Source: Paraburkholderia fungorum (GTDB lineage Bacteria; Pseudomonadota; Gammaproteobacteria; Burkholderiales; Burkholderiaceae). Taken from it: a stretch of DNA of 64,000 nt. The DNA is taken from NCBI RefSeq assembly GCF_900099835.1, contig NZ_FNKP01000002.1:2604001-2668000 (forward strand), written 5' to 3'. The position numbers and the translations under genes are program-made. Positions 1 through 17,461 of the stretch are shown one piece after another. The first letter of the stretch is position 1, and each line of letters begins with the position of its first letter. Under the pieces are notes generated by a model. It was not told the origin of the DNA. It saw nothing but the letters and a program-made list of their open reading frames with translations, and did no database searches.

Positions 1-2739
1 ACGTTCGCCGACAATCTGCTCGTAGCCGAGCGGCATCTTGCTGATGAATGCATGCGCGTCGGCCATCTTCGCGACCTCTTCAATACGCCGCCGATCGGGC
101 ACGTCGTCGCCACTCGCAATGTTCTCCGCAATCGTGCCGGAGAACAGCAGATTGCTCTGCATCACATACCCGATTTGCGCACGGTAATACGCTTTATCGA
201 CGACACCGAGGTCATAGCCGTCTATCGTCATCTTGCCTTCGCTCGGGGCATAAAATCCCACCAGCAGTTTTGCCAGCGTGGTTTTACCGGACCCGCTGCG
301 GCCTACTATAGCCACCAGTTCTCCCGGCTTGATATCGAAACTGATGTTTTCCAGCACGTACGCCGAGTCGTTTTCGCCGTAGCGGAAGTACACCCCGCTC
401 AGGCTGATATCGCCTTGCAACTCGGGCAGCATGACGCGAGACGGTAAATCCTGCGGCTTCTGTTCTGGTTCGATATCGAGTACATCGCCGAGACGTTCCA
501 TTGCAACGCCCGCGTCGTTCAGCATGCTCCATAGACCGACGAGTCCCATTAACGGACTCAATACGCTGCCCATGAAAGCGTTGAATGCAATCAACTGACC
601 AATCGTCATTTCACGCGCCAACACCAGGTTCGCACCCACCCACAGAATGGCGATTGTCGTCGCCGCGTTGAGCAACTGACTGCCAAGTCCGACGAGAATA
701 TTGAATGCATGCGCGCGGTACTGCACTTCGAGCGCTTTCGCGTACTTCTTCTCCCAGCGCAAACGCACTGGCCGCTCGATGCCCATGCCTTTGATCGTCT
801 CCACGCCCGCGAGTGCTTCCATCAAAAACGACTTCGATTCCGTCGATGCAGTGAACACCTCGCGCGCGTAGCTTTTTATTTTTGGCGTGGCCAACGCGGT
901 TAACGCCATGATTGGAATGACGAATGCAATTAGTACAAGCGTCATCTTCACGTTGTAGACGAACATGATGGTGAAGTAGATGAACACCATCAGCAGGTTG
1001 AGTGCAGTCGTGACGGTCGACTCGGTCAGAAACGCGCGGATAGTTTGATTCTCCTGGAAGCGCGCGAAAATATCGCCGGTTTTCCGTTTGGCGAAAAACG
1101 AAAACGGCAGCGACAGCGTGTGTTTGAAGAACTGCGACATCATCGCGAAGTCCATGTTGCGAACCATGAAATTGGCGAGATATGCGCGAATCGACGACAT
1201 CAGTTGCGAAAAGACATTGGCGATAATCAGGCCGCCTATCAGCAGATGCAGCAGGCTCACGTTCTGATGCACGATCACGCCGTCGAGAATGTTCTGGATA
1301 ATCAGAGGCGGAATGACGCCCAGCACCTGAATCACAAAGGTAGCCAGAAACAAATGACCGAGAATCTTTTTATAAGGTTTGAGGTAGCCGACAAAACGTA
1401 TCCACGGCGAACGCGCTGCTGACATCTGCAGCAGATGCGGACCACCGGTAAATAACAGACAAGTACCGCTCCAGCCACGCTCGAAATCTTCGACCGTCAA
1501 TTTCCTGAACCCGAGCGCGGGATCGGCGACCCATACGTAGTCTTTCGACAGACCATACACCACCACGTAGTGATAACCCTCCCAGTGCACGATGAACGGC
1601 AGATCAAACCCACGTAGCGAATCGAAAGTGCATTGCACGCCGCGCGCAGTGAAGCCGAGCGCTTCGCCCGCACGCGCAAGGCTATCAAGCGTGGCGCCCT
1701 GGGTGGTGACGTTGGCTAGTTCGCGCAATTTGCCCAGCGTCATCGGAATACTGTAGTGACGGCAAACCATCGCGAGACACGCCGCGCCGCAATCCATTTC
1801 TTCAGCCTGCTCGACCAGTGCAAAGCGCTTGATAAGCCTCTCGCCGAATTCAGGCTTGCTCTGCAAATCAAGCATCAACGGCAATTTTCGACGCTGCTCG
1901 AGTCGCTTTTGCCGTTGCAATTCGCGGTCGCCGTAGCGAATCCGTTCGTCGAGAACTTCACGCAATTTCGGATTGCGTTCAAGAATGAAGTGGACCGTCC
2001 GCTCCGGTATGACCAATAGCCGCGTGTCGATGCTCGCCACGACCGAAGCCATCTGTTCCTGCCGCATCAAACACGCTTTCTCGCCAAATATCTCGCCTTC
2101 GCCAAGCGTCGCGAGCGTGTAGTCGTGGCCTTCTTCATGTCTGACAATGCGAACTTCGCCTTGGCGCACCACGTAAAGCCGTCGGTCGTCGCGACCGTCC
2201 TGCTTGAGAATTTCCTTGCCCGCAGCGACCCGTTTCACGCCGACGCTGCGCACATACTCTTCGAGTTCCGCCTTATTCAGTTTGCCGCGCAGGTCGAACA
2301 ATTGTGCGACGAAGCCGCCTGCCGAATTGATCGCGACATAGCTCGCGACAAATGCCAATGCGGCCTGATTGCCGGCCATCACCGGCTCGATCGCGCTGCG
2401 GGGAATAAACAGCAATTCGGTTTTCGCCGACGAGCGTACCGATGCTTCATGCACATACGTACGCAGCATCGCTATGTCGGCAAAAATCTCGCCGGCCTTG
2501 CGCACGCCCATGCTGGTTTCCTTACCGTGCTCCTCGGTGAAAATACGTACCGAGCCTGAGCGCACGACATAAAGCCCTTCGGCCACCTCTCCCGTCGAGC
2601 AGACCGTTTCGCCAAACGAATAGAAGCGCGCTTGCGCATAGTCGGCAAGACGCTCGATCTCGTCGCGTGAAAACGGCGAGAGAATCTCCACCGAAGCTAG
2701 AAACTCGGCGGCGGATGGCGCGGTCTGGGGTGCATCCAT
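1..2739 (-). CDS. C39-peptidase ABC exporter with two cyclic-nucleotide-binding domains (C-terminus outside window)
   Basis: Inner-membrane exporter that should cleave double-glycine leaders and pump out the released peptide. The 913 visible residues hold two cNMP-binding-like domains (about 10-120 and 150-265), a C39 peptidase domain with Cys317 in the motif MDCGAAC, the His in HWEGYHYVVVYG and Asp in VADP, a six-helix transmembrane region (about 440-720), and the start of the ATPase with Walker A GRSGSGKTT near residue 812. The signature and Walker B motifs lie beyond position 1. The ATG at 2739 lies 1 base beyond the stop of the isomerase gene, so the two are probably co-translated. The cNMP domains suggest ligand control of export, but no ligand can be read from sequence. 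Confidence 0.93.
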   Translation of the reverse strand, partial: MDAPQTAPSAAEFLASVEILSPFSRDEIERLADYAQARFYSFGETVCSTGEVAEGLYVVRSGSVRIFTEEHGKETSMGVRKAGEIFADIAMLRTYVHEASVRSSAKTELLFIPRSAIEPVMAGNQAALAFVASYVAINSAGGFVAQLFDLRGKLNKAELEEYVRSVGVKRVAAGKEILKQDGRDDRRLYVVRQGEVRIVRHEEGHDYTLATLGEGEIFGEKACLMRQEQMASVVASIDTRLLVIPERTVHFILERNPKLREVLDERIRYGDRELQRQKRLEQRRKLPLMLDLQSKPEFGERLIKRFALVEQAEEMDCGAACLAMVCRHYSIPMTLGKLRELANVTTQGATLDSLARAGEALGFTARGVQCTFDSLRGFDLPFIVHWEGYHYVVVYGLSKDYVWVADPALGFRKLTVEDFERGWSGTCLLFTGGPHLLQMSAARSPWIRFVGYLKPYKKILGHLFLATFVIQVLGVIPPLIIQNILDGVIVHQNVSLLHLLIGGLIIANVFSQLMSSIRAYLANFMVRNMDFAMMSQFFKHTLSLPFSFFAKRKTGDIFARFQENQTIRAFLTESTVTTALNLLMVFIYFTIMFVYNVKMTLVLIAFVIPIMALTALATPKIKSYAREVFTASTESKSFLMEALAGVETIKGMGIERPVRLRWEKKYAKALEVQYRAHAFNILVGLGSQLLNAATTIAILWVGANLVLAREMTIGQLIAFNAFMGSVLSPLMGLVGLWSMLNDAGVAMERLGDVLDIEPEQKPQDLPSRVMLPELQGDISLSGVYFRYGENDSAYVLENISFDIKPGELVAIVGRSGSGKTTLAKLLVGFYAPSEGKMTIDGYDLGVVDKAYYRAQIGYVMQSNLLFSGTIAENIASGDDVPDRRRIEEVAKMADAHAFISKMPLGYEQIVGER

Positions 2740-2740
2740 G

Positions 2741-3493
2741 TTATCGGGCCTCGATAACGTGCTCCTGCGCACGCGCAATCAGCCAGCTTTCACGCAGCAG
2801 GCGCCGCACTTCGGCGGCCACATCCGCGTCGAGCGTGGCGGGATACTTCGCCGTTACGGCGAAAATCTCATAGCACGATCGATCCGCCGAAGGAAATGGA
2901 CCGAGCAGATCGCCCACTGCCGCATTGAATATCTTGGCCTCGATATCCGGCTTCAGCGATCCACGCAGCACTTTTCCGATCACACCGCCGGCCTCGCGGG
3001 TGTCCGCAATTGAATGCTCGCGCGCCATGTCGGCGAAACTGTCGGGGTCGTCGTGCAGATACGAGATCATTTCCTTCGCTTTACCCTCGCTGTCGAGCAC
3101 GATATGGCTCACTTCGATCGAGTCGAACTTCGGTGAATTCAATGCGAAGTAGTCTTTTATCGCCGACTCGTTGCCGACCTCGTCGAGCATCTTCTCCTGA
3201 TACAAACCATCGGTGACGAAGGCCTCAAATTCGTCGAGGCTCACACGGAGAACATCGAGATACTGATTCATATCCGTCGCGCGATGCAGCCCGCGCACGC
3301 GGCGGAACTGATCGGCGCGCTGCTGGATTTCATCGGCGGTCACGACAATGCCCTGCTTTTTCGCAGCGTGCACTGTGAGCTTGTCGCGCACGATCTGCTC
3401 GATCAAACTTTCGAACTGACCAGTCAGTTTCAGAAGACGGATGAACTCAGCCACATCCACGACTTCATCATCGATACGCACTATCGCGGTCAT
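2741..3493 (-). CDS. SurA/PpiC-like peptidyl-prolyl isomerase of the export operon
   Basis: A 250-residue protein with an N-terminal helical SurA-like segment and a rotamase (parvulin/PpiC) domain around residues 125-225 (motifs SIEVSHIVLDSEGKA, AREHSIAD, GGVIGKVLRG). It has no signal peptide or membrane helix, so it should act in the cytoplasm, unlike classical SurA. It lies between the HlyD adaptor and the C39 exporter genes, and its stop is 1 base from the exporter start. This context suggests it holds or folds the leader peptides before export. That role is inferred; the fold assignment is firm. Confidence 0.85.
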   Translation of the reverse strand: MTAIVRIDDEVVDVAEFIRLLKLTGQFESLIEQIVRDKLTVHAAKKQGIVVTADEIQQRADQFRRVRGLHRATDMNQYLDVLRVSLDEFEAFVTDGLYQEKMLDEVGNESAIKDYFALNSPKFDSIEVSHIVLDSEGKAKEMISYLHDDPDSFADMAREHSIADTREAGGVIGKVLRGSLKPDIEAKIFNAAVGDLLGPFPSADRSCYEIFAVTAKYPATLDADVAAEVRRLLRESWLIARAQEHVIEAR

Positions 3494-3541
3494 TTCATCG
3501 GCTCCTTTAATTGACGTGTAATCGGCGTGCTCAAGCGGTAC

Positions 3542-4915
3542 TCAACCCGCTACCTGCCTGAACGGATCGAGACCGAGATCGATCAGGCGCCGCTCGCGCA
3601 CCACGATCTCCGCGTTGGCCGTCATGCCGTAGCGCAGTGGATAACGCGTATCGGCGATCTGGTAGTAATTTCTGTCGAGCGTCACACGGCCTTCGTAGAC
3701 CGGCTGCTTATCCTGTAACGACGGCTTCGTGGCCGGTGAGATATAAGCCAGCGTGCCGCTGATTAGCCCATAGCGCTGATACGGAAACGCGTTGAATTTC
3801 AGCTTGACCGGCAAGCCTTCATGCAGAAAAGCACGATCATGCTCGGCGATTTCTATCTTGAGCACAGGCCGCGCATCTTTCGGCGCGATGCCGCCGAGTG
3901 GGGCGTTTGCCTGGATCTTGTCGCCGCGCTGGGTCGACGTCACGTCCGTGATGACACCCGAAACGGGCGCCAGAATCAGCAGGAAATTGTCCTTGTCGAT
4001 GTTCTCGAAGCGGATTCGCGCAGCAGCTTCGGACACGAGTCGCGCGGTCTGCAATTGCAAACGCAGTTTGTCTTCGGCGTCGGTGATATCGCGCACTGCG
4101 GAATCGTATTGAAGCTGAAGGTCGGTAGTTTGCTGGCCACTGGTTTCGAGTTGTGCGTTGGCCTGCGCGTATTCGTGACTGAGGCGGAAGTCCAGTTCCG
4201 CGAGCTTCGATTGCGCGACACGGTACGCGTTATCGGCTTCCATCGCAGCGGTGCGCTTCTGCTCGACCTGCAATTCGGCAATCCCGCCGCCGCCGGGTTG
4301 TGCGAAGAGTTTCGAATAGCGGTCCAATTCCTGACGCGCTGCCTCGCGCGTGCGACGAGCGTTGTCGAGCACACTGCGCGCTTCGTCCAGTTCGGCCTTC
4401 TGTCCTTCCGCAAGCTTGGTTGTACCTTCGGATACGCGGTTTTCGTGCTGCCGCGCCTCCACTTCCATTTGCGCCTTGAGCGCCGCCGCTTTGCGCTCCA
4501 TTAACGCCTTCTTCTCGGGGAACTGCTTCCAGTCACGTTCGGCGTCTTCGAGTTTGAGTTGCGCCTGTAGCGCATTGCTTGCGGCTTCGATTGCGCCACG
4601 AGCGTTCAATCGTGCGAGCACGTCGCCCTTCGACACCGGCTGTCCCTCGGCGATATACAGATCGGCAAGCTCGCCGTCGATCGGCGCATAGATGCGGCGC
4701 ACTTCCGATTCCGGCGACAGCGTTCCTTGCGCGGACACGATCACATCGGCGCGGCCCACGAACGACCACAACAGCCCGGCGACCACCAGCGCGACCATCG
4801 CCCAGATCAGGGCCCGCGCGATCTTCACTGGCTCGGCGGTCAGAATGGCGATGCCTTCGACGCTGTGATCCTCCAGCGCCTCAGACAACGGCCTAGGGTG
4901 ATTCTCGCGCTTCAC
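3542..4915 (-). CDS. HlyD-family periplasmic adaptor (membrane fusion protein)
   Basis: A 457-residue adaptor joining the inner-membrane exporter to the outer-membrane channel. It has a short cytoplasmic N-terminus, one membrane helix (about 32-52, ALIWAMVALVVAGLLWSF), a barrel-sandwich half (IYAPIDGELADLYIAEGQPV), a long coiled-coil hairpin (about 115-290) and the second lipoyl half with LAPVSGVITDV, then a beta-barrel end. The start is a GTG at 4915 that overlaps the end of the FHA gene by 23 bases, with GGAGG about 9 bases upstream. The layout matches adaptors of C39-ABC peptide export systems. Confidence 0.92.
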   Translation of the reverse strand: MKRENHPRPLSEALEDHSVEGIAILTAEPVKIARALIWAMVALVVAGLLWSFVGRADVIVSAQGTLSPESEVRRIYAPIDGELADLYIAEGQPVSKGDVLARLNARGAIEAASNALQAQLKLEDAERDWKQFPEKKALMERKAAALKAQMEVEARQHENRVSEGTTKLAEGQKAELDEARSVLDNARRTREAARQELDRYSKLFAQPGGGGIAELQVEQKRTAAMEADNAYRVAQSKLAELDFRLSHEYAQANAQLETSGQQTTDLQLQYDSAVRDITDAEDKLRLQLQTARLVSEAAARIRFENIDKDNFLLILAPVSGVITDVTSTQRGDKIQANAPLGGIAPKDARPVLKIEIAEHDRAFLHEGLPVKLKFNAFPYQRYGLISGTLAYISPATKPSLQDKQPVYEGRVTLDRNYYQIADTRYPLRYGMTANAEIVVRERRLIDLGLDPFRQVAG

Positions 4916-7484
4916 TCTGCTCGCCTCCGATCAGACTCAGTTTTGCTTTCAGCAACCCGGGGTCCAGCACCATGCGCAATTCCGTCAGCGAGCGGCGCTG
5001 TAAATCAGCTTCGGCTTCGATATCCGCGAGAAGGCGGTCAAAATCCGCGGGGTGATCGGCCTTCAATTGAGTGTAGATGCGCATGCCCTGTTGCGCCGAC
5101 GTCTGTGCGTCGGAGAGCAATCGCGCCTCGCTGCGGAATCCCGGCGATATGCCCGCCTCCAGCCGTTGCGTTCCGCCAATCGGGCCACTCGCGCGATACT
5201 GCTTCCACAGGCTCTGTGCGCGCAGCAGCAGATCTTGTGCGCGCGCCAATGCCTTGTCGTGTAATGCGGCCACGTCTTTCTGAATCGATTGCACGAACCA
5301 GGAATCCGCTGCGGGGTCGAGACTCGCGTAGAACGACAGCAGGCGCTGGTCGTAATCCTTGCTGCCGCGCGCTTTCTGTAAATCGCCGAATTGATCGAGC
5401 AGGGCTTTCTTGTGTGCAAGTTCTGCGGCGAGTACGTCTGACCATGGCCCCGCAGGCATGGCCTGCAAACCGGCCAGCGCCTGTTGCGCATCGCCGCGCT
5501 GCCATGCGGCGTTCACCGCGTCCTGACGCTGGATCACGTCAGATGAAGGCAGTCGGCTCGCTGCGAGTTGCTGGAATTGCGACTGAAACGGCGGCGTGCT
5601 GAAATGCGCCGATTTCAGCATCGCAAGCAAAGGGGTCAATTGACGACCGAGCGCGGCATTCAAGAGTGCGGTGTACTCCCGCAAATCCGCCCGCACCTGA
5701 TCGAGGCCGGCAAGACGTGGATAACGCTGCGCGTAATCATCGAGTACCGGCGGCAACGCGTCGGGTTTATCGTGCGCCAGTTCGGTGCGTATTGTGCCGT
5801 TCAACCGGTCTATCGCCGCGACATACACCGAATCGTCGCTCTCCAGTTTTCGCAGATGACTTAGCGCCTGCGCATACGGCTCGGCAAATACCGGCACATA
5901 CGAAGCGATCCGGTCGAGTGCACGCTGATGACCCTTCGCGTCGTCGTCCCAGCGCTGCAGCAGATTGTTGATCGTGGCTTCGTCCGCGTACAGATGAATC
6001 GGCGCATCGACGCCGCCGCGCGCGGCCACGAAACGCTCCAGATCTCCAACCCACTGCAATTCTCCGACCAGCGCAGTTGCATCGACATTGTTTTCGCTCA
6101 ACGATTTCATCTCCTTGAGCAGCGCGTCGGCCTGATCGAATTGGGCTTTTTCCAGCGCATTCAGCCAGCCAGGAAGCTTCGCCTTTAATAACGCCTCGCT
6201 CGCCAGCGCACTGACTTTCGTGTCCGTGGGATGACTCGACAGATAGCCTTTCGCGGCCACGACCGCGCTGCTGTAATCGCCGCTCGCGAGCAGGTTCTTC
6301 AATTCACGCTCCGACGAACCATGCAGATAAAGCGCTACGGATATTGCACCTAGCAGGACAATGCCCGCACCGCCCCAGCCCGCAATCCGCTTCATTCCAA
6401 CGCGATCGCCGTCCGCAAAAGCATTGCCGAGTTCGCCCGCAAGCAAACGCCAGCGTCGCGATTTCCCTTTCGCGCTGGCCGCGTTTCCCGAGCCGTTCAC
6501 GCCACTTCCATGGCTCGCTTTATGCAGCCCGTTTGTGCCGTTCGTGCTATTCGCGGTCACGGCCTGTGCGGTGACCGGCTGCGATGCTTCGTTGATTTCG
6601 TCCTCGCGTTGCAGCGCCGGATCGACACAAAAAATATCGAGGAACGAATGCGCGGCACCGACGAATGTGGTCTTGTCGGAATCGGCCGCGTCATCGACGG
6701 CAGGATTGAGGAATAGCTGGGTCACGGTGGGCTCGACTTCAGGGGGCGTTTGCAGCGACACCCTGTAGACGAAGTGGTCGCCGCCAAATGCAACGAGGTC
6801 GCCCTCTACAAGCGGTATCGCCGATTCGTCCAGGCGCTTTCCGCCGACGAATGTTCCATTCGTGCTGCCGAGATCTTCGACATGGAGATCGCCGCCCTTC
6901 AAATAGATATGAGCGTGACGGCGTGAAATGTAATTCACCTGATGCGGATAACGCTCCTTGTAGCGCGAAAAAACGTCGTCCGCCTTGCTGACGAGGAATG
7001 GGAAAGCGTGCACCTCGATGGGTTGCAAGTCCAGGTCGTCGCGCTCCGGTATCAACAGAAGACCCGGTGCAGACGGCGCACTCGCTGCCGCAACGATGCG
7101 AGCACGCGGTTCTATGCTCACGCGATAACAAAGCTCGCCGCCAAAGCACAATTCGTCGCCGGCTCTGACGCGCGACGGGGTTTGCCGGACGGCGACGCCA
7201 TTCACCGTCGTGCCGTTCTTACTCCCGAGATCGGCGACATACACCGCGCCGTGTTCCGTGAAAACCCGCGCATGACGGCGCGATAATCGCGCGATGCGCT
7301 CGCTGGAGTAGTCGGTGAAAGGTGCTTCGCTGCGTCCGATGGCGAACAGGTTGTCGACAATCCGGATCGCGTCGAGCGCGGGACGTTGCGCAGATGCAGC
7401 GGATGCAACCGGCGACAATACGACGTCGAATGCGGCTTCCACGGTCTCACGCATTTCAGCAATCGGAGCTTCGCCTGTGGCCAT
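4893..7484 (-). CDS. Two-FHA-domain transmembrane protein of the export operon
   Basis: An 863-residue protein with two forkhead-associated domains that should bind phosphothreonine. FHA1 (about 45-125) shows GRSEAPF, SRRHARV and LGSKNGTTVNG; FHA2 (about 155-245) shows SRRHAHIY and LGSTNGTFVGG. A Ser/Asn/Gly-rich linker and one membrane helix (about 372-392, GGAGIVLLGAISVALYLHG) follow, then about 470 residues of helical, repeat-like periplasmic region without a domain I recognise. It is translationally coupled to the HlyD gene. Because a transmembrane Ser/Thr kinase is encoded nearby (13286-15463), it is a plausible phospho-dependent scaffold for the exporter. That link is inference. Confidence 0.88.
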   Translation of the reverse strand: MATGEAPIAEMRETVEAAFDVVLSPVASAASAQRPALDAIRIVDNLFAIGRSEAPFTDYSSERIARLSRRHARVFTEHGAVYVADLGSKNGTTVNGVAVRQTPSRVRAGDELCFGGELCYRVSIEPRARIVAAASAPSAPGLLLIPERDDLDLQPIEVHAFPFLVSKADDVFSRYKERYPHQVNYISRRHAHIYLKGGDLHVEDLGSTNGTFVGGKRLDESAIPLVEGDLVAFGGDHFVYRVSLQTPPEVEPTVTQLFLNPAVDDAADSDKTTFVGAAHSFLDIFCVDPALQREDEINEASQPVTAQAVTANSTNGTNGLHKASHGSGVNGSGNAASAKGKSRRWRLLAGELGNAFADGDRVGMKRIAGWGGAGIVLLGAISVALYLHGSSERELKNLLASGDYSSAVVAAKGYLSSHPTDTKVSALASEALLKAKLPGWLNALEKAQFDQADALLKEMKSLSENNVDATALVGELQWVGDLERFVAARGGVDAPIHLYADEATINNLLQRWDDDAKGHQRALDRIASYVPVFAEPYAQALSHLRKLESDDSVYVAAIDRLNGTIRTELAHDKPDALPPVLDDYAQRYPRLAGLDQVRADLREYTALLNAALGRQLTPLLAMLKSAHFSTPPFQSQFQQLAASRLPSSDVIQRQDAVNAAWQRGDAQQALAGLQAMPAGPWSDVLAAELAHKKALLDQFGDLQKARGSKDYDQRLLSFYASLDPAADSWFVQSIQKDVAALHDKALARAQDLLLRAQSLWKQYRASGPIGGTQRLEAGISPGFRSEARLLSDAQTSAQQGMRIYTQLKADHPADFDRLLADIEAEADLQRRSLTELRMVLDPGLLKAKLSLIGGEQSEARESP

Positions 7485-9750: not shown

Positions 9751-9801
9751 GGTTCGAGCAACTTGTCTGCTCGAGTGTCACTAATGCATGGGCTGTGCCA
9801 G
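9751..9801 (-). repeat. 51-bp promoter repeat, copy A (inverted relative to copy B)
   Basis: Read on the minus strand, this 51-bp segment is identical to 15788-15838 on the plus strand. It holds the -24/-12 promoter and the first transcribed bases of the peptide A gene. Similarity drops in the untranslated leader and rises again at the ribosome site and coding region. The pair indicates a duplicated peptide gene with constrained control sequence. Confidence 0.9.
9786..9800 (-). promoter_or_regulatory. -24/-12 (sigma-54-like) promoter of peptide A
   Basis: On the minus strand TGGCAC is followed by five bases and ATGC, one mismatch from the sigma-54 consensus TGGCAC-N5-TTGC with correct GG-to-GC spacing. 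It lies about 90 bases before the start codon. An identical element precedes peptide B and a closely matching one precedes peptide E. Confidence 0.6.
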
Positions 9802-9964
9802 GGTGAGCTTCCACTCTTCAAAAACTTGCCGGATGCCTTCATTTAAAGGACTTCCTGAGTATCACCTCTTAAAACGCGCGTCGATATCGATTAAAGAACA
9901 ACCTGTGAATGGTGGATCGAAGCCAACATACGAAGCCATGTAGTTGGCCCGCTTGCGACACCGC

Positions 9965-10399
9965 TCATCGCGCAATAACCGTGATCTTCTTCGAGTACAC
10001 CGGCGGGTTATGCGGCATGTGCATGTCGTCGCCCATCAGCAACTGCAACGTGTGCTTTCCCGGCGGCAATTGAATCGTGGTTTCCGTTTCACCCGCGCCG
10101 AAATGCAGATGATTGCGGTCCGATGGAATCTCCTGATCCATCGGCGGCAAGTCGGTATCGATCAATAGATGATGGTGGCCGGTATTCGGATATTTGACGC
10201 CTTTCGGCGCAACGCCCATATAGCGCAGGCCGAACCACACTTTGAACGGCTTGTTGGCGGCCACGACCTGGCCGTCGTTCGGATAGCCGATATAGGCAAA
10301 AGCGGAAGCCGGCGCAGGTGTCGCTCCTGCGAAAACAAAACCGGGCAACGCCAATGCCGCCGACGTCACAAGCGTCGCGACTGCGATGATCCTGTACAT
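9965..10399 (-). CDS. DUF4399 secreted protein 1
   Basis: A 144-residue exported protein with a signal peptide (about 1-24, ending VFAGA) and one DUF4399 domain. Characteristic motifs are YPNTGHHHLLIDTDLP, EIPSDRNHLHFGAGETE and LPPGKHTLQLL. The His-rich loop could bind metal, but function is not established. It lies 46 bases after a paralogue (10446-10931), and the pair forms an operon between peptide A and the caspase-like gene. Whether it belongs to the peptide system is uncertain. Confidence 0.85.
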   Translation of the reverse strand: MYRIIAVATLVTSAALALPGFVFAGATPAPASAFAYIGYPNDGQVVAANKPFKVWFGLRYMGVAPKGVKYPNTGHHHLLIDTDLPPMDQEIPSDRNHLHFGAGETETTIQLPPGKHTLQLLMGDDMHMPHNPPVYSKKITVIAR

Positions 10400-10445: not shown

Positions 10446-10931
10446 CTAGTTCTTTAGCACGGTGATGGTGATCTTCTTCGAATACACGGGCGGCACGTGC
10501 GGTACATGATTGTGGTCGCCGAGAATCAGTTGCAGCGTGTGCTTGCCCGGCGGCAGTTCGATGCGCGCGTCCGTTTCGCCTGCCCCGAAGTGCAGATGAC
10601 TGCGATCCGACGGAATTTCCTGGTCGAGCGCGGGCAGATCGGTATCGATCAGCAGATGATGATGACCCGTGTTGGGAAACGCGACGCCCTTCGGGCAAAT
10701 GCCCATATTGCGCAACCCCATTCGCACCCAGAGTTTGCCGCCGTGAATGACCGCGCCGTCCGACGGCCAGATGATGTATTCCTCCGCGCCGGGCGGCGAC
10801 GGTGTCTGCTCCGCTTGCGCCACAGTTCCGGCGACCACCAACGTCGCGCAAAGCATCACGCGCAATGCAGCAAGGCGTGTTTTGATTTCATCACGTCTGT
10901 TGGACACAACGGGAATCAGGCTTATTCGCAT
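10446..10931 (-). CDS. DUF4399 secreted protein 2
   Basis: A 161-residue paralogue of the 9965-10399 product, with an N-terminal signal segment (LRVMLCATLVVAGTVAQA) and the same FPNTGHHHLLIDTDLP, EIPSDRSHLHFGAGETD and LPPGKHTLQLIL motifs. The ATG at 10931 has a clear ribosome site (CAGGAGAG), which rules out the longer upstream frame. It is the first gene of the DUF4399 pair. The role is unknown; periplasmic location is likely. Confidence 0.85.
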   Translation of the reverse strand: MRISLIPVVSNRRDEIKTRLAALRVMLCATLVVAGTVAQAEQTPSPPGAEEYIIWPSDGAVIHGGKLWVRMGLRNMGICPKGVAFPNTGHHHLLIDTDLPALDQEIPSDRSHLHFGAGETDARIELPPGKHTLQLILGDHNHVPHVPPVYSKKITITVLKN

Positions 10932-11296
10932 AGCGCACTCTCCTGAAGAGTGGTCACGGTCACCTCGGTTGCACGGGGCAAACCGAACGTTCCGGCTGAA
11001 TATCGCGGGCGCGAATGACTGGACGACCACCTCGGTAAAACGGCCGTGCTGCGCTACTTTGTGAATTAGCTTAGGACGTAACTTGCCAAAAAGATACGCC
11101 ACACTCGTTATCCGTATATCTCATTGAGAATACGCGGACAGTGGTGATGCACAAAGCGCGTGCTATGGTTATTAACAGGTTGCAGATGGATGATCGATAG
11201 CGGCATCGATGCCTCGCGCCGGGTACTTCAGTAATCGCTGCGGGCAAGGCGGTCCTCGAATGCCTAGGTTCTGTCCGGGACAAACAGGATGTGAAG
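10932..11296. other. Divergent intergenic region, 365 bases
   Basis: This lies between the DUF4399 pair (minus) and the caspase-like gene (plus) and must contain both promoters. I see no sigma-54-type element, strong palindrome or coding frame here. Confidence 0.5.
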
Positions 11297-13240
11297 ATGT
11301 GGCGAATATTCATGCTGCTGTGCATGGCTGGGGCAATCCACACCTATTGCGGCAATGCCAATGCCGCGACGCAACGTGAGGATACGAACTGGAGCGCGAC
11401 TCCATCCGGCACACACGCCCCACACGCCCCACGTCTTGCACTTGTGATCGGCAACGGCGAGTACGGTGGCCTCCCCCGTTCTCTGCGAGACAATGCGCCG
11501 CGCGATGCCGAAGCAATAAGCGACACATTGCGAGCACTCGGATTCGAAGTCATCACGCGTACGAATGCCAGTCCGCGCGGCATGCAGCAGGCGCTCGGCG
11601 AATTCCGCCAGCGTCTGGGGGCAGGTGGCGTCGGCCTCTTCTATTTCGCGGGACACGGCATGCAAATTGGCCGACAGACTCTGCTTGTTCCCGCAGGGCT
11701 TGATATGCACGCACCCGCTTCGTTGATCAATGACAGCATCGATCTAAACGCCGTATTGCATGCGATGCAGAAGCCGCGCGCCGGTCAATTGAATCTCGTG
11801 ATTCTCGATACGTGCCTGAACAATCCGTTTTCTTCCGGCACGACAAGCGGCGCGGCAAGCGGCACATCGGCGCTTCCCGCCAATACTGTGGTCGCGTATG
11901 CAACGGCAAACGGCAGCTTCGCCGCAGACGGCAGGTACCACGGCATTTACACGAGCGCTTTGCTGAATGCGCTAAACGACGCGCCATCGCGGCAAAATCT
12001 CACCACGCTGTTTCGGCGCGTCACTGCGGAAGTTGTCGAGATCACGAAGGGAGAGCAAAGGCCGTGGATCGCTACATCTCTGGCCATGCCCTTGACGCCC
12101 CCCGCCAGCGTGCAGGGCGACGCGATTGCGCCGCCCGCCTATGCCTATGCAAATACCGACATCGTCGTCATCCCGCATAGCCGGGGCATTCTTCCGAAAG
12201 ACAGCAGCGAGCAGTACGAAATCACGTTCTGGAATTCAATCAAGGACAGTAATTATCCGGCTGATTACGAGGCGTATCTGAAGGCCTATCCTAACGGCAG
12301 GTTTGTCACGCTGGCACACGCTCGAATCGACCGTCTTCGTGCGGCGGCGTCGAATCCACCGGCTGTTGCGGTATCCCCACCAGTAGCACCACCCCAGGTT
12401 ACGCGACCCGCTACGCCGGCAAGCGCCGCAGCGCAAGAACACCCGCATGTGACAGCCGCGCCACCCGCCAGTGCTCCCGCCACTTCATTGGCCGCGCCGA
12501 AGCCCGCCACGCACCCGCCAGTGGCCGGAGAACAGCGGGACTGCGCCACCTGCCCGATCATGATCGCCGTGCCCGCAGGCTCGTTCCCGATGGGCAGCAA
12601 CACCGACGACCCATCCGAGAAACCTGTTCATCACGTGACTATTGCCGCGCCGTTTGCGATCGGCAAATACGCGGTGACGGTCGAACAATGGAACGCGTGC
12701 GTCGCGGCCAACGCGTGTCAGAATTTGACGCCCGAAAGCAACACCAACAAGACCGCACCAGCGCGCGATATCAGTTGGGACGACGCGCAGCAGTACGTGA
12801 AATGGCTCAGCAAGATAACCGGCAAACCGTATCGCTTGCCCACCGAAGCCGAATGGGAATATGCGGACCGTGGCGGCACGACCACTGCCTACTGGTGGGG
12901 CGATCAGATGCGCAAAGGCAACGCGAACTGCAAGGACTGCGGAGATCCGTGGCACAAGGAAGGGCCCGAATCCGTCGGCTCGTTCGCGCCGAATCCGCTC
13001 GGCCTGTACGACATGAACGGCAGCGTCTGGGAATGGACCGCCGACTGCTGGCACAACAGTTACCAGGGCGCGCCTGTGGACGGACACTCATGGGACAGCC
13101 CCGGCTGCGATATGCGCGTCATTCGTGGCGGCTCATGGCGCGAGAACGGCAGCTACATGCTCAGTGCAACCCGCTTCAAATACAGCGCAGGCGTGCGTCA
13201 ATCGCAGGATGGGTTACGAGTCGTCAAAGACCTTAAGTGA
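11297..13240 (+). CDS. Secreted caspase-like protease fused to an FGE/SUMF1-type domain
   Basis: A 647-residue protein with a signal peptide ([18 protein letters not shown], cleavage near NAA). Residues about 45-250 form a caspase-like (peptidase C14) domain with [12 protein letters not shown], catalytic His120 in YFAGHGMQ and Cys173 in [10 protein letters not shown] short [20 protein letters not shown] segment and a Pro/Ala-rich linker follow. The C-terminus from about 419 is a formylglycine-generating-enzyme-like domain ([48 protein letters not shown]). A GTG six bases upstream could also be the start. It faces the kinase gene and lies inside the peptide cluster. A role in peptide processing is possible but unproven. 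Confidence 0.88.
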
Positions 13241-13285: not shown

Positions 13286-15463
13286 TCAAGGCGCACGCGG
13301 TTTCGTCGTGATCGGCGCAAAGTCGGCAACGAGATGATCCTGCCCATACTTGCCGCCGATTTGCGCGAGCCGCGTATTAAGTGCGCGTAGATAATCGGCA
13401 CGTGATTCGCTTTCCACGCGCGGTTTGTCGAATAGCGGCACGGGCGTGATCAGCAGCACCACCATCTCCGAACCGAATGGTTTTGAAATGATCCAGTCGC
13501 CCGCGCTGCCGATCGTGGCCGAATAATGCGACGGCGCCTGATTATCTTTCGCGCGCGGACTCGGCACCATATGCACGACGCTGCCGTCCAGCTGGTAGTA
13601 GTCGAGATTCACATACGAGTCGTAACCCGGCGTGCTCACATCGACCACTAGCGGATCGCCGTCGCTCAACTGACCATTCGACTGACCGCCTGGCGGCCGC
13701 ACATGCAACTCGGCCACACGGCCCGCCTGCCAGTTGCGGACCCAATAGGGCGCCAGTGCTTTAACGGTGTCGCATTTGTCGTCGGCGAGCGGTTCGACTC
13801 CGAGCGTGAGTGCATCGACACCGGGCAAAGCCGTCAGCGTTTCCTTCAGATGCGCCACGCCGTAACGCTGCGAGACGTAGCCGCGCACCGTCAGCGAATG
13901 ATCCTGCACGGCCGCGGATAGTGCGGAACACGGCACCTGCGCGAGGACGGGCATGACGGCCGCGAGAGTCAGCGCGGGTCTGGGCGCGGGCGATGGCGGT
14001 GGTACAGGTGGCGCTTGAATCGCCGTTGAAGCCGCAGAAGCAGGCGCTGAAGCGTCCGGTGTTTTCGCCGTCGTCGTGTCAGACACCGCAAGAGCAGTTG
14101 CCGCCATTTTTGCGGCCGGGGGTGAACTCGCCTCTGCCGCCGCCTGCGACGTGCCAGCGTCGGCCTGAGAGCCTCCCTGCCGCCCTGGTCCAGAGCGCAA
14201 CGCAAATACCCCTACCGCCGCCGCGCAGACCACGGCAAAGCTCGCAAGCCCCACTTTCGCCAGCGTGCCCGACTTCTCAGCGCGCGCCTCGTTGTCGAAT
14301 TCGGCGATAAAACGCGTCACGCTCGGCATCCGCGTGGCGCGATCGAAAGACAGCGCCGCGCGTAACGCGCGCCACTGCCTGGCATCGAGATTCGCAGGCC
14401 GCTGCGGTTTGAAATCCGCGTTGCGTGCCTGAGTCGCCGACAACCGGTCGAACGGATGATGCCCGGTCAACAGTTCATACGTGATGCAACCAAGCGCATA
14501 GATATCGTCACGCGGATCGGGCTCGCGATGCTCGATCATCTCCGGGCTCGCATACGCGGGCGTTAACGCGCCGAGACTGCCGGGATCGAAAACAGTGGCG
14601 TCGCTCTCTTCTTCCGGACGCTGAAACACGCGCGCAATGCCGAAATCGATCACCTTCACTTCGGCGCCCGTCGTCAGAAACACGTTGGCGGGTTTGAAAT
14701 CGCAATGGACGAAACCGCGCTCATGCGCATACGCGAGCGCGGCACACATGCCGCGCACGATCGGCAGCGCCGCGCGCACGGGCATGCCCTGATAACCGGG
14801 CGTACGCAGTAACTGGCTGAGCGGTTTGCCGCTCAGATACTCCATCGTCAGATAAACAATCGGGCCGTCGCGGTCGAAATCGTAGACCGTGATGATGTTG
14901 CGATGCGCGAGCACCTGCGCCTTGCGCGCCTCGCGCTGCAACGCGACCAGCGAATTCGGATTGCCGCGGAACTGAACGTTGAGAACCTTGATCGCGAGAT
15001 ACGGCTTGCGATCCGACGCTTCGAGTTTGCGCAGATCGAGCGCCTTATACACCGTACCCATGCCGCCCACGCCGAGGCACTCTTCGAGCACGAAGCGGTT
15101 ATTCAGGGTGTCGCCGGTGCCTTTGATCTGATCGTGCCCGACGATGTCGGCTGATCCTGCCGCACTGCCCAGGCTGCCCGCACTGGCGGAGCGCACGGAC
15201 GGAATTTCCACCGTGGTCTGAATGCCGGTTTCCTCGCCACCGGCCGCGACGTTGGACACGCGTAACTGTTCGATGCGTCGGCGGACTTCAACGTAGAGAT
15301 CGTCGGGTAAAGGTGTTTTTCGATGCGCGGTGCCGAGCATCTCCAGCAACTGCGTGGGCGCGAGTCCTTCTGTTGTCAACGTGCTGTCGAGTTGAGCCAC
15401 GAACTCGTCACGGGACAGCTCGCCGTTCTGAAAGTCGTGAATCACACGCGCAAGGCTAGCCAT
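13286..15463 (-). CDS. Transmembrane eukaryotic-like Ser/Thr kinase with C-terminal DUF4384-like domain
   Basis: A 725-residue protein. After about 120 N-terminal residues comes a PknB-type kinase domain (about 125-395): glycine loop LGVGGMGTVY, AIKVL lysine, catalytic HCDFKPANVF, IDFGIARVF and ASPEM. A membrane helix (about 420-440, GLASFAVVCAAAVGVFAL) and a Pro/Ala linker precede a periplasmic part ending in a DUF4384-like domain (DSYVNLDYYQLDGSVVHMVP). A GTG at 15517 gives a slightly longer form; the ATG at 15463 starts the better-conserved-looking MASLARVIHDF. All catalytic residues are present. The nearest likely reader of its phosphosites is the FHA protein at 4893-7484. Confidence 0.9.
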   Translation of the reverse strand: MASLARVIHDFQNGELSRDEFVAQLDSTLTTEGLAPTQLLEMLGTAHRKTPLPDDLYVEVRRRIEQLRVSNVAAGGEETGIQTTVEIPSVRSASAGSLGSAAGSADIVGHDQIKGTGDTLNNRFVLEECLGVGGMGTVYKALDLRKLEASDRKPYLAIKVLNVQFRGNPNSLVALQREARKAQVLAHRNIITVYDFDRDGPIVYLTMEYLSGKPLSQLLRTPGYQGMPVRAALPIVRGMCAALAYAHERGFVHCDFKPANVFLTTGAEVKVIDFGIARVFQRPEEESDATVFDPGSLGALTPAYASPEMIEHREPDPRDDIYALGCITYELLTGHHPFDRLSATQARNADFKPQRPANLDARQWRALRAALSFDRATRMPSVTRFIAEFDNEARAEKSGTLAKVGLASFAVVCAAAVGVFALRSGPGRQGGSQADAGTSQAAAEASSPPAAKMAATALAVSDTTTAKTPDASAPASAASTAIQAPPVPPPSPAPRPALTLAAVMPVLAQVPCSALSAAVQDHSLTVRGYVSQRYGVAHLKETLTALPGVDALTLGVEPLADDKCDTVKALAPYWVRNWQAGRVAELHVRPPGGQSNGQLSDGDPLVVDVSTPGYDSYVNLDYYQLDGSVVHMVPSPRAKDNQAPSHYSATIGSAGDWIISKPFGSEMVVLLITPVPLFDKPRVESESRADYLRALNTRLAQIGGKYGQDHLVADFAPITTKPRAP

Positions 15464-15787
15464 TTGTGTGAAGCGCCGCCGCTGCCGTTGGGCCGGATCG
15501 CATGCGACCGAAGCCACGCAGGCCGATAGAAAAGCTTCCGTAACCAGTTACATGTGCCGCTTCGATACTAGCTCCCGGTCCGTGCTTTCGCAAACCAGGA
15601 TTGGCCCGCGATACGCGTTGCAGGCAGGTGTCGTTCGGTATCCAACAGCATCCGATCAAGTGTCGGACGCAGACCATCGGTTCGCTCGCGCGCGGATACG
15701 CTGCGTGACTTCTCCGTTGATCCGCAAACGGCCCGAAAGCCTTGAATATCAAGCCTTCCGAAAATTTATCAGGATCCTTGAATAAAA
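15464..15787. other. Divergent intergenic region upstream of kinase and peptide B
   Basis: About 320 bases without a supported gene. It should hold the minus-strand kinase promoter and, near its right end, activator sites for the -24/-12 promoter of peptide B. I could not define an enhancer-binding-protein site. Confidence 0.4.
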
Positions 15788-15838
15788 CTGGCACAGCCCA
15801 TGCATTAGTGACACTCGAGCAGACAAGTTGCTCGAACC
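15788..15838 (+). repeat. 51-bp promoter repeat, copy B
   Basis: Identical over 51 bp to the minus strand of 9751-9801. It contains the -24/-12 element and the likely transcription start of the peptide B gene. Confidence 0.9.
15789..15803 (+). promoter_or_regulatory. -24/-12 (sigma-54-like) promoter of peptide B
   Basis: TGGCAC-AGCCC-ATGC, one base from the sigma-54 consensus with correct spacing, 76 bases before the peptide B start codon. It probably drives both peptide B and peptide C. Confidence 0.6.
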
Positions 15839-15878: not shown

Positions 15879-16157
15879 ATGAACGCACTGATGATCAAAG
15901 ATCTGTCCATCACCGAAGAACTCGACAGCCGTGCAATGAGCGCCGTGCGCGGCGGCAATGGCTTCGGCCCCTCGTCGTCCTATTACAACTTCAGCCCGAT
16001 CTACGCGCCGAACAACAGCAAAAACGTCAACGGCACGCAACTCATCAGCACCGAGTTGAACATGCAGAACGCCACCGGCAACAACGTCGCATTCGCCGCC
16101 GGTCTCAACTCGACGCTCGCGCCCTGCATCAGCTCGGGCAACAACATCCACGTGTAA
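15879..16157 (+). CDS. Double-glycine leader peptide B
   Basis: A 92-residue paralogue of peptide A. The leader MNALMIKDLSITEELDSRAM continues to SAVRGG, then a 66-residue core NGFGPSSSYYNF with YAPNNSK, LNMQNATGNN and a single Cys in LAPCISSGNN, where peptide A has His. The ATG at 15879 is preceded by CCAGGAGATTCACC. It is likely cleaved after GG by the C39 exporter. Peptide C follows 88 bases downstream behind a hairpin, so the two probably share a transcript. Confidence 0.85.
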   Translation: MNALMIKDLSITEELDSRAMSAVRGGNGFGPSSSYYNFSPIYAPNNSKNVNGTQLISTELNMQNATGNNVAFAAGLNSTLAPCISSGNNIHV

Positions 16158-16164
16158 AGCGCGA

Positions 16165-16245: not shown

Positions 16246-16530
16246 ATGTCATCCCTCATGATTCGCGATCTGTCCCGCACCCGCGAGCTCGACCGCCACG
16301 CAATGTCGGCGGTGTCCGGCGGCACGGGTAGCAGCGTGCCCGGCCTGCCCTCGGCGTCCGGTCTCAGCGGCATTGCCAACGTCAACGTGTCTATCAACCA
16401 GAACCTCACTCAGATGCAGTACACCAACGTTGCGGCACTCAACAACGTCGGCGTGATCGGCGCCGGTTTCGTGCCGCTGCATCTGAATGTCAGCCCCTCG
16501 TTGTGGGGCGGCAATTACGCTACGGTGTGA
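16246..16530 (+). CDS. Double-glycine leader peptide C
   Basis: A 94-residue peptide with the leader MSSLMIRDLSRTRELDRHAM ending SAVSGG, then a 68-residue core unlike A and B. The core is Asn/Gln/Val-rich with alternating polar and apolar residues (NVNVSINQNLTQMQYTNV) and Gly/Pro turns. The ATG at 16246 has TTTGGAGATTCACC upstream, the same ribosome-site context as peptide B. It is probably a co-substrate of the C39 exporter. I do not recognise the core. Confidence 0.82.
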   Translation: MSSLMIRDLSRTRELDRHAMSAVSGGTGSSVPGLPSASGLSGIANVNVSINQNLTQMQYTNVAALNNVGVIGAGFVPLHLNVSPSLWGGNYATV

Positions 16531-16713: not shown

Positions 16714-16932
16714 ATGGCAAAGCTCATCATTAAAGACCTTGCTGACAGTGTCGAACTCGATCGCGAGGCGATGGCCGCGATTGTCGGCGGTGCGCGAGTC
16801 GGCGCGCGTTCGAGCCTGGCCGCGCCTCTGGTGCCCGCATCGACACGCGTTGTCAACTATCCGCCGGGCTTCCCTGGCGCGCATCGGCAAATTGCGATTG
16901 CAGCGATGCGGCGTATCCGGCAAGGCGGCTGA
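16714..16932 (+). CDS. Double-glycine leader peptide D
   Basis: A 72-residue peptide with the leader MAKLIIKDLADSVELDREAM ending AAIVGG and a 46-residue Arg/Ala-rich basic core (RVGARSSLAAPLVP, AAMRRIRQGG). The ATG at 16714 follows TTGTGGAGCC. A longer frame begins upstream with GTG at 16621, but only the short form keeps the leader at the N-terminus. A TATACT box at 16611-16616 could be its own -10 element. The basic core differs chemically from A-C and looks more like an antimicrobial-type peptide, which is speculation. Confidence 0.78.
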   Translation: MAKLIIKDLADSVELDREAMAAIVGGARVGARSSLAAPLVPASTRVVNYPPGFPGAHRQIAIAAMRRIRQGG

Positions 16933-16959
16933 TTTCACCTTCGTACAGGCATCGCAATT

Positions 16960-16992: not shown

Positions 16993-17177
16993 GCTTTTCT
17001 CGATGCATGCGTACGCCGCATGCCAACTTCCCGAACGCGATTCGTGGGATACGTCCCGACACTTTCGTGCGATTCCGCATGCTCCCTGCGAGCCTGATGA
17101 GCGACACGCAACGCAATCGCCCGCCTGGTCTGGTATCGCAGAGAGACTTTGCCTCGCGGCTCGAAGCTCGCGAAAAT

Positions 17178-17193
17178 TGGCATAGCTCTTGCA
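17178..17193 (+). promoter_or_regulatory. -24/-12 (sigma-54-like) promoter of peptide E
   Basis: TGGCAT-AGCTC-TTGCA matches the sigma-54 consensus at both the -24 GG and -12 GC with correct spacing and one mismatch overall. It lies 55 bases before the peptide E start codon. Confidence 0.65.
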
Positions 17194-17248
17194 GAAATAG
17201 AAGCGAGCACCGCCCCGTGCTCGCCAATCCACTGTCAGGAGTACCGCC

Positions 17249-17461
17249 ATGAAATCCACTGTCATTATCAAAGACCTGCCGCGTTCCACGGACCACGCAC
17301 ACGACGAAGCAACGCTCTCGGCCGACCAGATGAAGATGCTGCGCGGCGGCCGCTCGGTGGTCGTCTCCGTCGGCGGCGCCGGCGGCGCAGTCGGTCATGT
17401 CGACGACTGGGAAATCAACACCGCCATCTTCGAAGGCCGTATCGGCGGGACCTATTTATAG
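17249..17461 (+). CDS. Double-glycine leader peptide E (divergent leader)
   Basis: A 70-residue peptide beginning MKSTVIIKDLPRSTDHAHDE and reaching the cleavage motif in LSADQMKMLRGG, then a 36-residue core starting RSVVVSVGGAGGAVGH and ending GGTYL. The IIKDL opening is shared with peptide D, but the leader is 8 residues longer and lacks the ELDR.AM block. It has its own -24/-12 promoter and its own terminator, so it is expressed separately. The GTG/ATG context CAGGAGTACCGCC supports the ATG at 17249. Substrate status is likely but less secure than for A-C. Confidence 0.75.
   Translation: MKSTVIIKDLPRSTDHAHDEATLSADQMKMLRGGRSVVVSVGGAGGAVGHVDDWEINTAIFEGRIGGTYL

What the first reader, a model, noticed from the sequence alone, without database searches (positions are those of the whole stretch)
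1..17461. Candidate undescribed peptide-export system: five leader peptides with a C39 exporter, FHA protein, Ser/Thr kinase and caspase-FGE fusion
Five small genes share an N-terminal leader ending in GG, four with the pattern LMIKDL..T.ELD..AMSAVRGG. Beside them is a complete exporter set: C39-ABC, HlyD adaptor, outer-membrane factor and a cytoplasmic isomerase. Double-glycine leaders are the known C39 substrate signal. The additional FHA, kinase and caspase-FGE genes are not part of ordinary bacteriocin export and suggest a regulated or modified product. I know of no described system with this exact set.
Basis: partly seen in the sequence, partly recalled or inferred. Interest (0 to 1): 0.82.

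Follow-up and report, generated by a model that had tools for sequence, protein, structure and literature searches.

The report
Kinase-equipped, sigma-54-driven peptide exporter
Many Paraburkholderia and related soil bacteria carry an apparently undescribed set of genes that seems to make and export small proteins, with its own gene switch and a kinase-phosphatase pair that probably controls the export machine; what the small proteins do is not known.

Summary
In detail: five double-glycine (GG) leader ORFs lie beside a C39 ABC exporter with HlyD, outer-membrane factor, PpiC isomerase, FHA protein, Ser/Thr kinase and caspase-FGE protein. Off the window's left edge lie the exporter's end, a sigma-54 activator, a PP2C phosphatase, a sixth GG peptide and an LRAT-domain gene. 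In 119 distinct Burkholderiaceae loci the exporter core is in every eligible locus. Of 144 Paraburkholderia genomes 111 have both peptides and FHA gene, 32 neither, 1 peptide only. A sigma-54 site precedes 101 of 104 F-type and 110 of 135 A/B-type peptide genes (shuffles 2-3%); it is rare before other genes except LRAT (79 of 100, weaker). In five Caballeronia-type genomes the kinase has moved but stays beside peptides. Best reading: a PCAT/type I exporter whose cargo is transcribed by its own sigma-54 activator and whose machine is probably gated by a phosphothreonine-FHA switch, as in type VI secretion. Export, gating and cargo function are untested. Ten literature searches showed no description.

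The parts
1..2739 (-). C39 peptidase-containing ABC exporter with two N-terminal cNMP-fold domains; 3' end lies outside the window (frame of 1031 aa at L004:13683-16778)
   Evidence: Pfam PF03412 7.7e-38, PF00664, PF00005, PF00027 x2; full frame; C330, H403, D419, Walker A, LSGGQ at >=98% of rows, 103 orthologues. The start at 2739 is the first ATG in the listed frame, read by eye
2741..3493 (-). PpiC-type peptidyl-prolyl isomerase, probably cytoplasmic; matches TIGR04500 below its cut-off
3542..4915 (-). HlyD-type periplasmic adaptor
   Evidence: PF13437 2.3e-19; TIGR01843 171 bits, below its cut-off 208.65
4893..7484 (-). FHA protein: two FHA domains, one TM helix, ~450-residue all-helical domain predicted periplasmic
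7713..9197 (-). outer-membrane factor, NodT family
   Evidence: PF02321; TIGR01845 308 bits over cut-off 210
9416..9697 (-). GG peptide pepA (A/B type, 93 aa)
9785..9800 (-). sigma-54 -24/-12 site of pepA (TGGCACAGCCCATGCA), 87 nt before ATG
9911..9927 (.). candidate activator-binding palindrome (GTTGGC-N5-GCCAAC type, 2 mismatches)
9965..10399 (-). DUF4399 gene a (hydrophobic N-terminus, HHH motif)
   Evidence: PF14347 5.9e-37; 111 of 111 eligible distinct loci
10446..11102 (-). DUF4399 gene b (hydrophobic N-terminus)
   Evidence: PF14347 5.7e-37; 110 of 110
11291..13240 (+). caspase (C14)-FGE-sulfatase fusion protein
   Evidence: PF00656, PF03781; His122 and Cys175 in 97% of rows, 93 orthologues; 36 of 36
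13286..15517 (-). Ser/Thr kinase with TM helix; C-terminal DUF4384 match below cut-off
   Evidence: PF00069 7.4e-40, PF14326 1.6e-4; K177, D273 (HCD), DFG in all 24 orthologues aligned
15789..15804 (+). sigma-54 -24/-12 site of the pepB-C-D unit, 74 nt before pepB ATG
15879..16157 (+). GG peptide pepB (A/B type, 92 aa)
16246..16530 (+). GG peptide pepC (94 aa)
16714..16932 (+). GG peptide pepD (72 aa)
17011..17027 (.). candidate activator-binding palindrome (2 mismatches)
17178..17193 (+). sigma-54 site of pepE (TGGCATAGCTCTTGCA), 55 nt before ATG
17249..17461 (+). GG peptide pepE (70 aa), atypical leader; 71% identical relative in G026

Best explanation
A dedicated PCAT/type I export system for several classes of small proteins. 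A sigma-54 activator in the exporter operon (outside the window) switches on each peptide transcription unit through -24/-12 promoters and an upstream palindrome. Peptides, perhaps kept export-competent by the cytoplasmic PpiC protein, are cut after GG by the C39 domain and leave through ABC-HlyD-OMF. A membrane Ser/Thr kinase with a predicted periplasmic part, a PP2C phosphatase and a membrane FHA protein form a phosphothreonine switch that probably gates the machine, as the PpkA-PppA-Fha module gates type VI secretion. The two cNMP-fold domains of the exporter add a second, unidentified input. Cargo is more likely extracellular structural or matrix protein than a bacteriocin. Shown by sequence: gene content, synteny, co-occurrence, promoter sites, intact catalytic residues. 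Inferred: cleavage and export, activator-promoter pairing, kinase-FHA gating, cargo role.
For: Co-occurrence of FHA gene and peptides in 144 genomes: 111 both, 0 FHA only, 1 peptide only, 32 neither, Fisher p=3e-31 (not corrected for relatedness). In 119 distinct loci: S54 116 of 116 eligible, C39 118 of 118, HlyD 119 of 119, FHA 118 of 118, OMF 113 of 113, DUF4399 111 of 111 and 110 of 110, caspase-FGE 36 of 36, PP2C 103 of 108, LRAT 76 of 80, pepF 88 of 90, pepA 102 of 113, kinase 19 of 29; the 10 loci without kinase come from genomes among 14 searched, all 14 of which have a kinase orthologue. Sigma-54 sites: F 101 of 104, A/B 110 of 135, shuffles 2.6% and 2.0%; controls PP2C 0 of 109, S54 0 of 117, C39 0 of 118, PPI 1 and HlyD 1 of 119, FHA 4 of 119, OMF 12 of 118; before pepF in all 8 genera sampled, 34 of 35; 67-68 nt before the first gene of 8 of 8 tandem peptide arrays. 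Palindrome: F 82 of 101, A/B 57 of 110, shuffles 1.6% and 1.4%. In 5 Caballeronia-type genomes the kinase lies 0.1-1 Mb away (4) or on another contig (1), still beside peptides; 4 of 5 keep B-C-D with a sigma-54 site 71-73 nt before B, the fifth (G354) shows only D. Active-site residues kept.
Against: No transcript, proteomic or secretion data. Kinase-FHA-exporter contact rests on co-conservation. PP2C is missing in 5 of 108 eligible loci and no GG peptide was found in 5 of 119 distinct loci. The genome has a second C39-ABC exporter with HlyD- and TolC-like neighbours (L239; neighbours by eye) that could share cargo. LRAT, not a peptide gene, also has a sigma-54-like site in 79 of 100 loci, and OMF in 12 of 118. 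PepC and pepD have no promoter of their own; the palindrome is absent before the own pepB and in 2 of 8 genera. Both cNMP domains have Glu/Gln where CRP has its phosphate-binding Arg (CRP position recalled, aligned by eye), so a cyclic-nucleotide ligand is doubtful.
Confidence: 0.7

Rival explanations
1. A class II microcin/bacteriocin locus: the GG peptides kill neighbours and the rest is export and regulation.
For: GG leaders with C39-ABC/HlyD/OMF are the classic microcin export set (recalled). PepA cores evolve fast (median dN/dS 0.51 against 0.29 for its leader). Tandem peptide arrays in 4 of the 5 peptide-rich genomes looked at.
Against: No gene recognisable as a dedicated immunity gene was seen in or beside the arrays (filtered ORF lists). 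The pepF core is as constrained as its leader (dN/dS 0.137 and 0.125). Several distinct peptide classes sit at fixed places across genera and the family is in 112 of 144 genomes of the genus.
Confidence: 0.2
2. A signalling system: exported peptides inform sister cells, as proposed for the cNMP-bearing PCAT HetC of Nostoc.
For: HetC is the closest described exporter layout found: N-terminal cNMP domain + C39 + ABC, needed for heterocyst differentiation, the cNMP domain reported to be involved in ppGpp binding (PMC10986499, passages read).
Against: Cores of about 35-70 residues in several classes and tandem arrays of near-identical copies are unusual for a pheromone; no receptor was identified or sought.
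Confidence: 0.2
3. A RiPP cluster whose product is chemically modified (caspase-FGE, LRAT and PpiC as maturation proteins), akin to graspetide clusters.
For: PpiC matches TIGR04500 at 5e-28; a Micromonospora graspetide cluster has a TIGR04500 protein (MirC) with a synthetase and a PCAT, and the precursor was modified when co-expressed with synthetase and MirC (PMC13097080 section 8 read). A distant cNMP-PCAT locus outside the family, L137, has a RimK/ATP-grasp gene. Caspase-FGE and LRAT keep catalytic residues.
Against: PpiC is below the TIGR04500 cut-off (98.3 against 180 bits). No ATP-grasp, radical-SAM or cyclase family was hit by the locus genes profiled (lanthionine-synthetase and TOMM models hit only the kinase domain, below cut-off). 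DUF4399 proteins have signal-like N-termini and caspase-FGE seems to by eye, so they would act after export.
Confidence: 0.2

Closest known systems
HetC-type peptidase-containing ABC exporters (Nostoc PCC 7120)
   Same: N-terminal cNMP-fold domain, active C39, ABC core; regulated export (PMC10986499, passages)
   Different: Two cNMP domains here; candidate cargo lies beside the exporter, whereas that paper says no GG-leader gene was found near hetC; no kinase/PP2C/FHA/sigma-54 set appears in the passages read
Threonine-phosphorylation pathway of type VI secretion (PpkA-PppA-Fha; recalled, no paper read)
   Same: Membrane Ser/Thr kinase, PP2C phosphatase and FHA protein encoded with a secretion machine
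   Different: The machine is a C39/type I exporter; no T6SS family was hit by the locus genes profiled
Rv1747 of M. tuberculosis, ABC transporter with FHA domains (structures 6ccd, 6cah appear; control by the kinase PknF recalled)
   Same: An ABC transporter tied to pThr-FHA recognition
   Different: FHA is part of the ABC protein there; no C39 or GG cargo (recalled)
NHLP/Nif11-type bacteriocin export (TIGR03796/03797/03794)
   Same: C39-ABC with HlyD partner
   Different: All below curated cut-offs; four window peptides hit no Pfam family and the fifth only an unrelated one below cut-off
TIGR04500 graspetide partner PPIase clusters
   Same: PpiC-like protein next to a PCAT
   Different: No ATP-grasp enzyme found here; below the TIGR04500 cut-off

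Membership tests
C39 peptidase-containing ABC (PCAT) / type I export | Active C39 catalytic residues plus ABC core | tested here: met
   C330, H403, D419, Walker A, LSGGQ and Walker B D954/E955 at >=98% of rows, 103 orthologues; Pfam
C39 peptidase-containing ABC (PCAT) / type I export | Membrane-fusion protein and outer-membrane factor in the locus | tested here: met
   HlyD and NodT OMF; 119 of 119 and 113 of 113
C39 peptidase-containing ABC (PCAT) / type I export | GG-leader substrates cleaved and exported | tested here: inconclusive
   Leaders present and co-occurring; cleavage and export not testable here
T6SS threonine-phosphorylation pathway | STK + PP2C + FHA with conserved catalytic/pThr residues in the locus | tested here: met
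   (kinase relocated in 5 of 14 genomes asked)
T6SS threonine-phosphorylation pathway | T6SS structural genes in the locus | tested here: not met
   No T6SS family among hits of the locus genes profiled
NHLP/Nif11 bacteriocin system | Exporter above TIGR03796/03797 and HlyD above TIGR03794 cut-offs | tested here: not met
   552/853 and 403/709 bits; 72.6/156
Graspetide cluster with TIGR04500 partner | PPIase above TIGR04500 cut-off | tested here: not met
   98.3 against 180 bits
Graspetide cluster with TIGR04500 partner | ATP-grasp graspetide synthetase in the locus | tested here: not met
   No ATP-grasp family among hits of the locus genes profiled
Microcin/bacteriocin | Dedicated immunity gene with each precursor | tested here: inconclusive
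   None recognised in ORF lists; small or novel immunity genes could be missed
Microcin/bacteriocin | Killing activity | not testable with these tools
   needs bench assay
Sigma-54-controlled regulon | -24/-12 elements before cargo genes and a GAFTGA activator in the locus | tested here: met
HetC-type PCAT | N-terminal cNMP-fold domain | tested here: met
   PF00027 x2, 3e-34
HetC-type PCAT | Nucleotide (ppGpp) binding by that domain | not testable with these tools
   needs a binding assay

The most novel reading that the evidence does not exclude
A new secretion system: a type I peptide exporter under a T6SS-like phosphothreonine switch that builds an extracellular multi-component assembly (possibly amyloid-like) from several peptide classes plus lineage-specific tandem-array peptides, all transcribed on demand by one sigma-54 activator. 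A, C and F cores may share an ancestral 'Q..Q.Q.V.V.N' motif (hhalign on core-only profiles: E 1e-3, 3e-4 and 5e-5 for single pairs, probabilities only 20, 38 and 67%), and AlphaFold is fairly confident for residues 51-90 of pepB (block means 81-87, whole-model pTM only 0.31).
Probability: 0.3. Interest if true: 0.86.

Novelty: new variant of a known kind. Interest (0 to 1): 0.72.

Why it matters
If right, kinase/phosphatase/FHA control, best known from type VI secretion (recalled), is also wired to a type I peptide exporter in over a hundred species (111 of 144 genomes of the genus, one genome per species), and the cargo comes with its own sigma-54 regulon. It would also be a cNMP-bearing PCAT whose likely cargo sits next door, which makes the cargo question left open for HetC testable in a relative. 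Strains such as P. xenovorans LB400, where the locus is on chromosome 2 (L153), make genetics feasible.

Tried and rejected
Foldseek of the pepB model against PDB: 0 matches; DSSP gave nothing for that model, which may be a tool failure. The helical half of the FHA protein gave only weak TPR-like hits and VIA-align barely tested that part. FHA also matches PF16697 (Yop-YscD cytoplasmic domain, an FHA-type fold by recall) above its cut-off; not read as a T3SS part. Solved structures for DUF4399: none. PADLOC: partial ATPase, kinase, AAA, caspase and cNMP matches; no defence reading adopted. Rfam and tRNA: none. Phages: no PPI match; plasmids: 18 records, 4 at 75-76% (three Caballeronia, one B. 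stagnalis replicon) and 14 under 30% (13 cyanobacterial, 1 Herpetosiphon); no annotation was held for the two stretches opened. No GG peptide was found in the nine non-family loci L131-L139; seven of them were scanned for sigma-54-like sites, and the few found were not before a leader of this type (best 14.5 of 15, before a 920-aa ORF in L132). In the order the PPI profile at E<=1e-35 matched 3 of 300 genomes, all in the own family, and missed at least six others of that family. In the class sample (369 genomes) two exporters outside the family are strong full-length relatives, G639 73% and G606 68%; they keep S54-C39-PPI-HlyD-FHA-OMF on contigs that end close to the activator gene.

Literature: ten searches of an open-paper library; no description of this system was seen in listings or in what was opened: passages of PMC8939145, PMC13097080 (section 8), PMC9088363, PMC10986499, PMC12322963, PMC3482391 and PMC8277102 (of which only the first 300,000 of 747,799 characters are held). 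The rest of the listings were not opened.

Weak points of the counts: the 131 family loci include genomes held under two names; one search recounts on 119 distinct by PPI DNA. Loci were found through FHA or PPI, so those two are present by construction. Shuffles are mononucleotide and the loci are related, so the chance rates are not independent-trial probabilities. Peptide classes were set by hand-written regular expressions; C and D are undercounted because the named loci do not reach them. The first dN/dS run misplaced the leader/core cut for A; one search corrects it. The lists compared were copied by hand.

Full report
WHAT IS THERE. The window is G000:C2:2604001-2668000 of an 8.58-Mb, 4-contig genome whose named peptide homologues and nearest named loci are Paraburkholderia. 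The window cuts the C39 gene; the flanking stretch L004 shows its end, a sigma-54 activator overlapping its stop (L004:12325-13686), a convergent PP2C phosphatase gene (11538-12308), a sixth GG peptide just before that (11245-11532, 95 aa) and an LRAT-domain gene (10269-10763).

THE LOCUS IS ONE CONSERVED SYSTEM. A search with the FHA protein found relatives in 111 of 144 genomes of the genus at E<=1e-10 and in 130 of 349 genomes of the family at E<=1e-30, 8 of 25 genera. Fetched loci keep one order: LRAT, pepF, PP2C, S54, C39, PPI, HlyD, FHA, OMF, pepA, DUF4399 x2, caspase-FGE on the other strand, kinase, pepB-C-D. In 119 loci distinct by PPI DNA every eligible locus has S54 (116), C39 (118), HlyD (119), FHA (118), OMF (113), both DUF4399 (111, 110) and caspase-FGE (36); PP2C 103 of 108, LRAT 76 of 80, pepF 88 of 90, pepA 102 of 113, kinase 19 of 29. 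'Eligible' means that the fetched stretch reaches 1.5 kb past the usual place. The ten loci without the kinase come from genomes that were all searched: 14 of 14 genomes asked have an orthologue, best stretches at 52-65% identity. There it still stands beside peptides: in L242, L244, L245 and L246 next to B-C-D with a sigma-54 site 71-73 nt before pepB; in L243 only pepD was found.

PEPTIDES FOLLOW THE SYSTEM. The A/B-peptide profile matched 112 of 144 genomes of the genus at E<=0.001; all 111 FHA-positive genomes are among them and one (G130, E 4e-5) has no FHA relative. In the own genome 5 of 6 matches are in the locus; the sixth is a leader-like ORF at C2:1157557 next to genes that look like cytochrome oxidase by eye. 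A leader profile found 271 GG peptides in 114 of 119 distinct loci. Classes are A/B, C, D, E and F. In four of five peptide-rich genomes looked at there are tandem arrays of near-identical copies, two blocks per genome with 3-7 copies each (L231, L232, L234, L235); ten copies compared in L231 are 86-100% identical in DNA. The pepF core is under clear constraint (dN/dS 0.137; leader 0.125), the pepA core much less (0.507; leader 0.286), against 0.07-0.18 for PPI, S54, FHA and PP2C in a third of the same loci.

A SIGMA-54 REGULON. Sites with invariant GG and GC and a score of at least 13 of 15 lie before 101 of 104 F-type genes (median 61 nt) and 110 of 135 A/B-type genes (75 nt); shuffled upstreams give 2.6% and 2.0%. 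Among other genes the counts are 0-4 of 109-119 (kinase 0 of 18), OMF 12 of 118 and, as the clear exception, LRAT 79 of 100, mostly with scores under 14. The site precedes pepF in 34 of 35 loci spread over 8 genera, pepE in both genomes checked, and 8 of 8 tandem arrays at 67-68 nt; pepC and pepD have none, fitting an operon behind pepB. Upstream lies a GTTGGC-N5-GCCAAC-like palindrome within 2 mismatches in 82 of 101 F and 57 of 110 A/B upstreams (shuffles 1.6% and 1.4%), mostly about 97 nt (F) or 110/143 nt (A/B) before the site. It was not found before the own pepB and was found in 6 of 8 genera. The locus activator keeps GAFTGA, Walker A and B in 128 orthologues. That this activator binds this palindrome is inferred.

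A PHOSPHOTHREONINE MODULE. Kinase (K177, H-C-D273, DFG), PP2C motifs and both FHA signatures are conserved (24, 117 and 115 orthologues). Kinase and FHA protein each have a TM stretch, and the FHA model shows two FHA domains, a TM helix and a long helical domain with block pLDDT mostly 80-92. By analogy with the T6SS module (recalled) the kinase may sense a periplasmic state and the FHA protein may hold or release the exporter. This is the least tested step. The cNMP-fold domains lack the CRP-type arginine (by eye); HetC's domain is reported to be involved in ppGpp binding and was not protected by cAMP (passages), so another nucleotide is possible.

CARGO. Four of five window peptides match no Pfam family, and pepD only an unrelated one below cut-off; NCBIfam gives only weak sub-cut-off hits, TIGR04149 (a GG-leader RiPP domain) for three of five. 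AlphaFold on 48 sequences gives leader pLDDT about 50 and 81-87 for residues 51-90, pTM 0.31, and no PDB match. Conserved classes at fixed places, constrained pepF, multi-copy arrays and no evident immunity gene lean away from a bacteriocin and towards an extracellular assembly or matrix; the fast pepA core leans the other way. This is a lean, not a result.

WIDER RELATIVES. Outside the family, G639 and G606 keep the six-gene core. More distant cNMP-PCAT loci share parts of the set by sequence: FHA in L133, L135-L138; S54 in L135-L138; PPI in L135, L136, L138; HlyD in L134, L136-L138; PP2C in L137. OMF genes were profiled in L135 (two) and L138 (one), and a RimK/ATP-grasp gene in L137; an ORF in L138 that looks alike by eye had no Pfam match. 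This hints that a regulated export chassis has been used with different cargo.

NOVELTY. Each part is known; the combination, its sigma-54 regulon and its spread were not seen in the papers searched (calls listed under Tried and rejected). I file it as a new variant of a known kind (PCAT/type I peptide export) that works like the T6SS phospho-switch without being a T6SS.

Noticed in passing
L231, L232, L234, L235 (genomes G046, G134, G021, G106): Head-to-tail arrays of near-identical GG-peptide genes (SNYN...AAFGGGFASP type), two blocks of 3-7 copies per genome, each block with its own sigma-54 site 67-68 nt before the first gene.
   Followed up: partly
L236 (G026), 3116-4677 and 16355-17000: The pepB and pepC genes are duplicated about 13 kb apart with other genes between, as if an insertion split and copied the peptide operon.
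   Followed up: no
L133-L138 (genomes of other families of the class): Distant cNMP-bearing C39 exporters with FHA, PPI, HlyD or sigma-54 activator relatives in varying combinations; L137 also has PP2C and a RimK-like ATP-grasp gene.
   Followed up: partly
L239 (G000:C1:2980000-2992000), 2176-6808: A second C39-ABC exporter gene in the same genome with HlyD- and TolC-like neighbours (by eye); no GG peptide of this family matched there.
   Followed up: partly
L238 (G000:C1:2920000-2933000), 3690-7910: A stand-alone 238-aa C39 peptidase among proteins with signal-like N-termini and no Pfam match; by eye reminiscent of Fap-type amyloid operons.
   Followed up: no
L241:7405-7680(-) (G000:C2:1157557): A lone GG-leader-like ORF with a different Cys/His/Gly-rich core, next to genes that look like a cytochrome o-type oxidase by eye.
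   Followed up: no
window 17671-19615(+): A TetR-like regulator and an MFS-like transporter (by eye) right of pepE; a similar pair stands right of the second peptide copy in L236; not regarded as part of the system.
   Followed up: no
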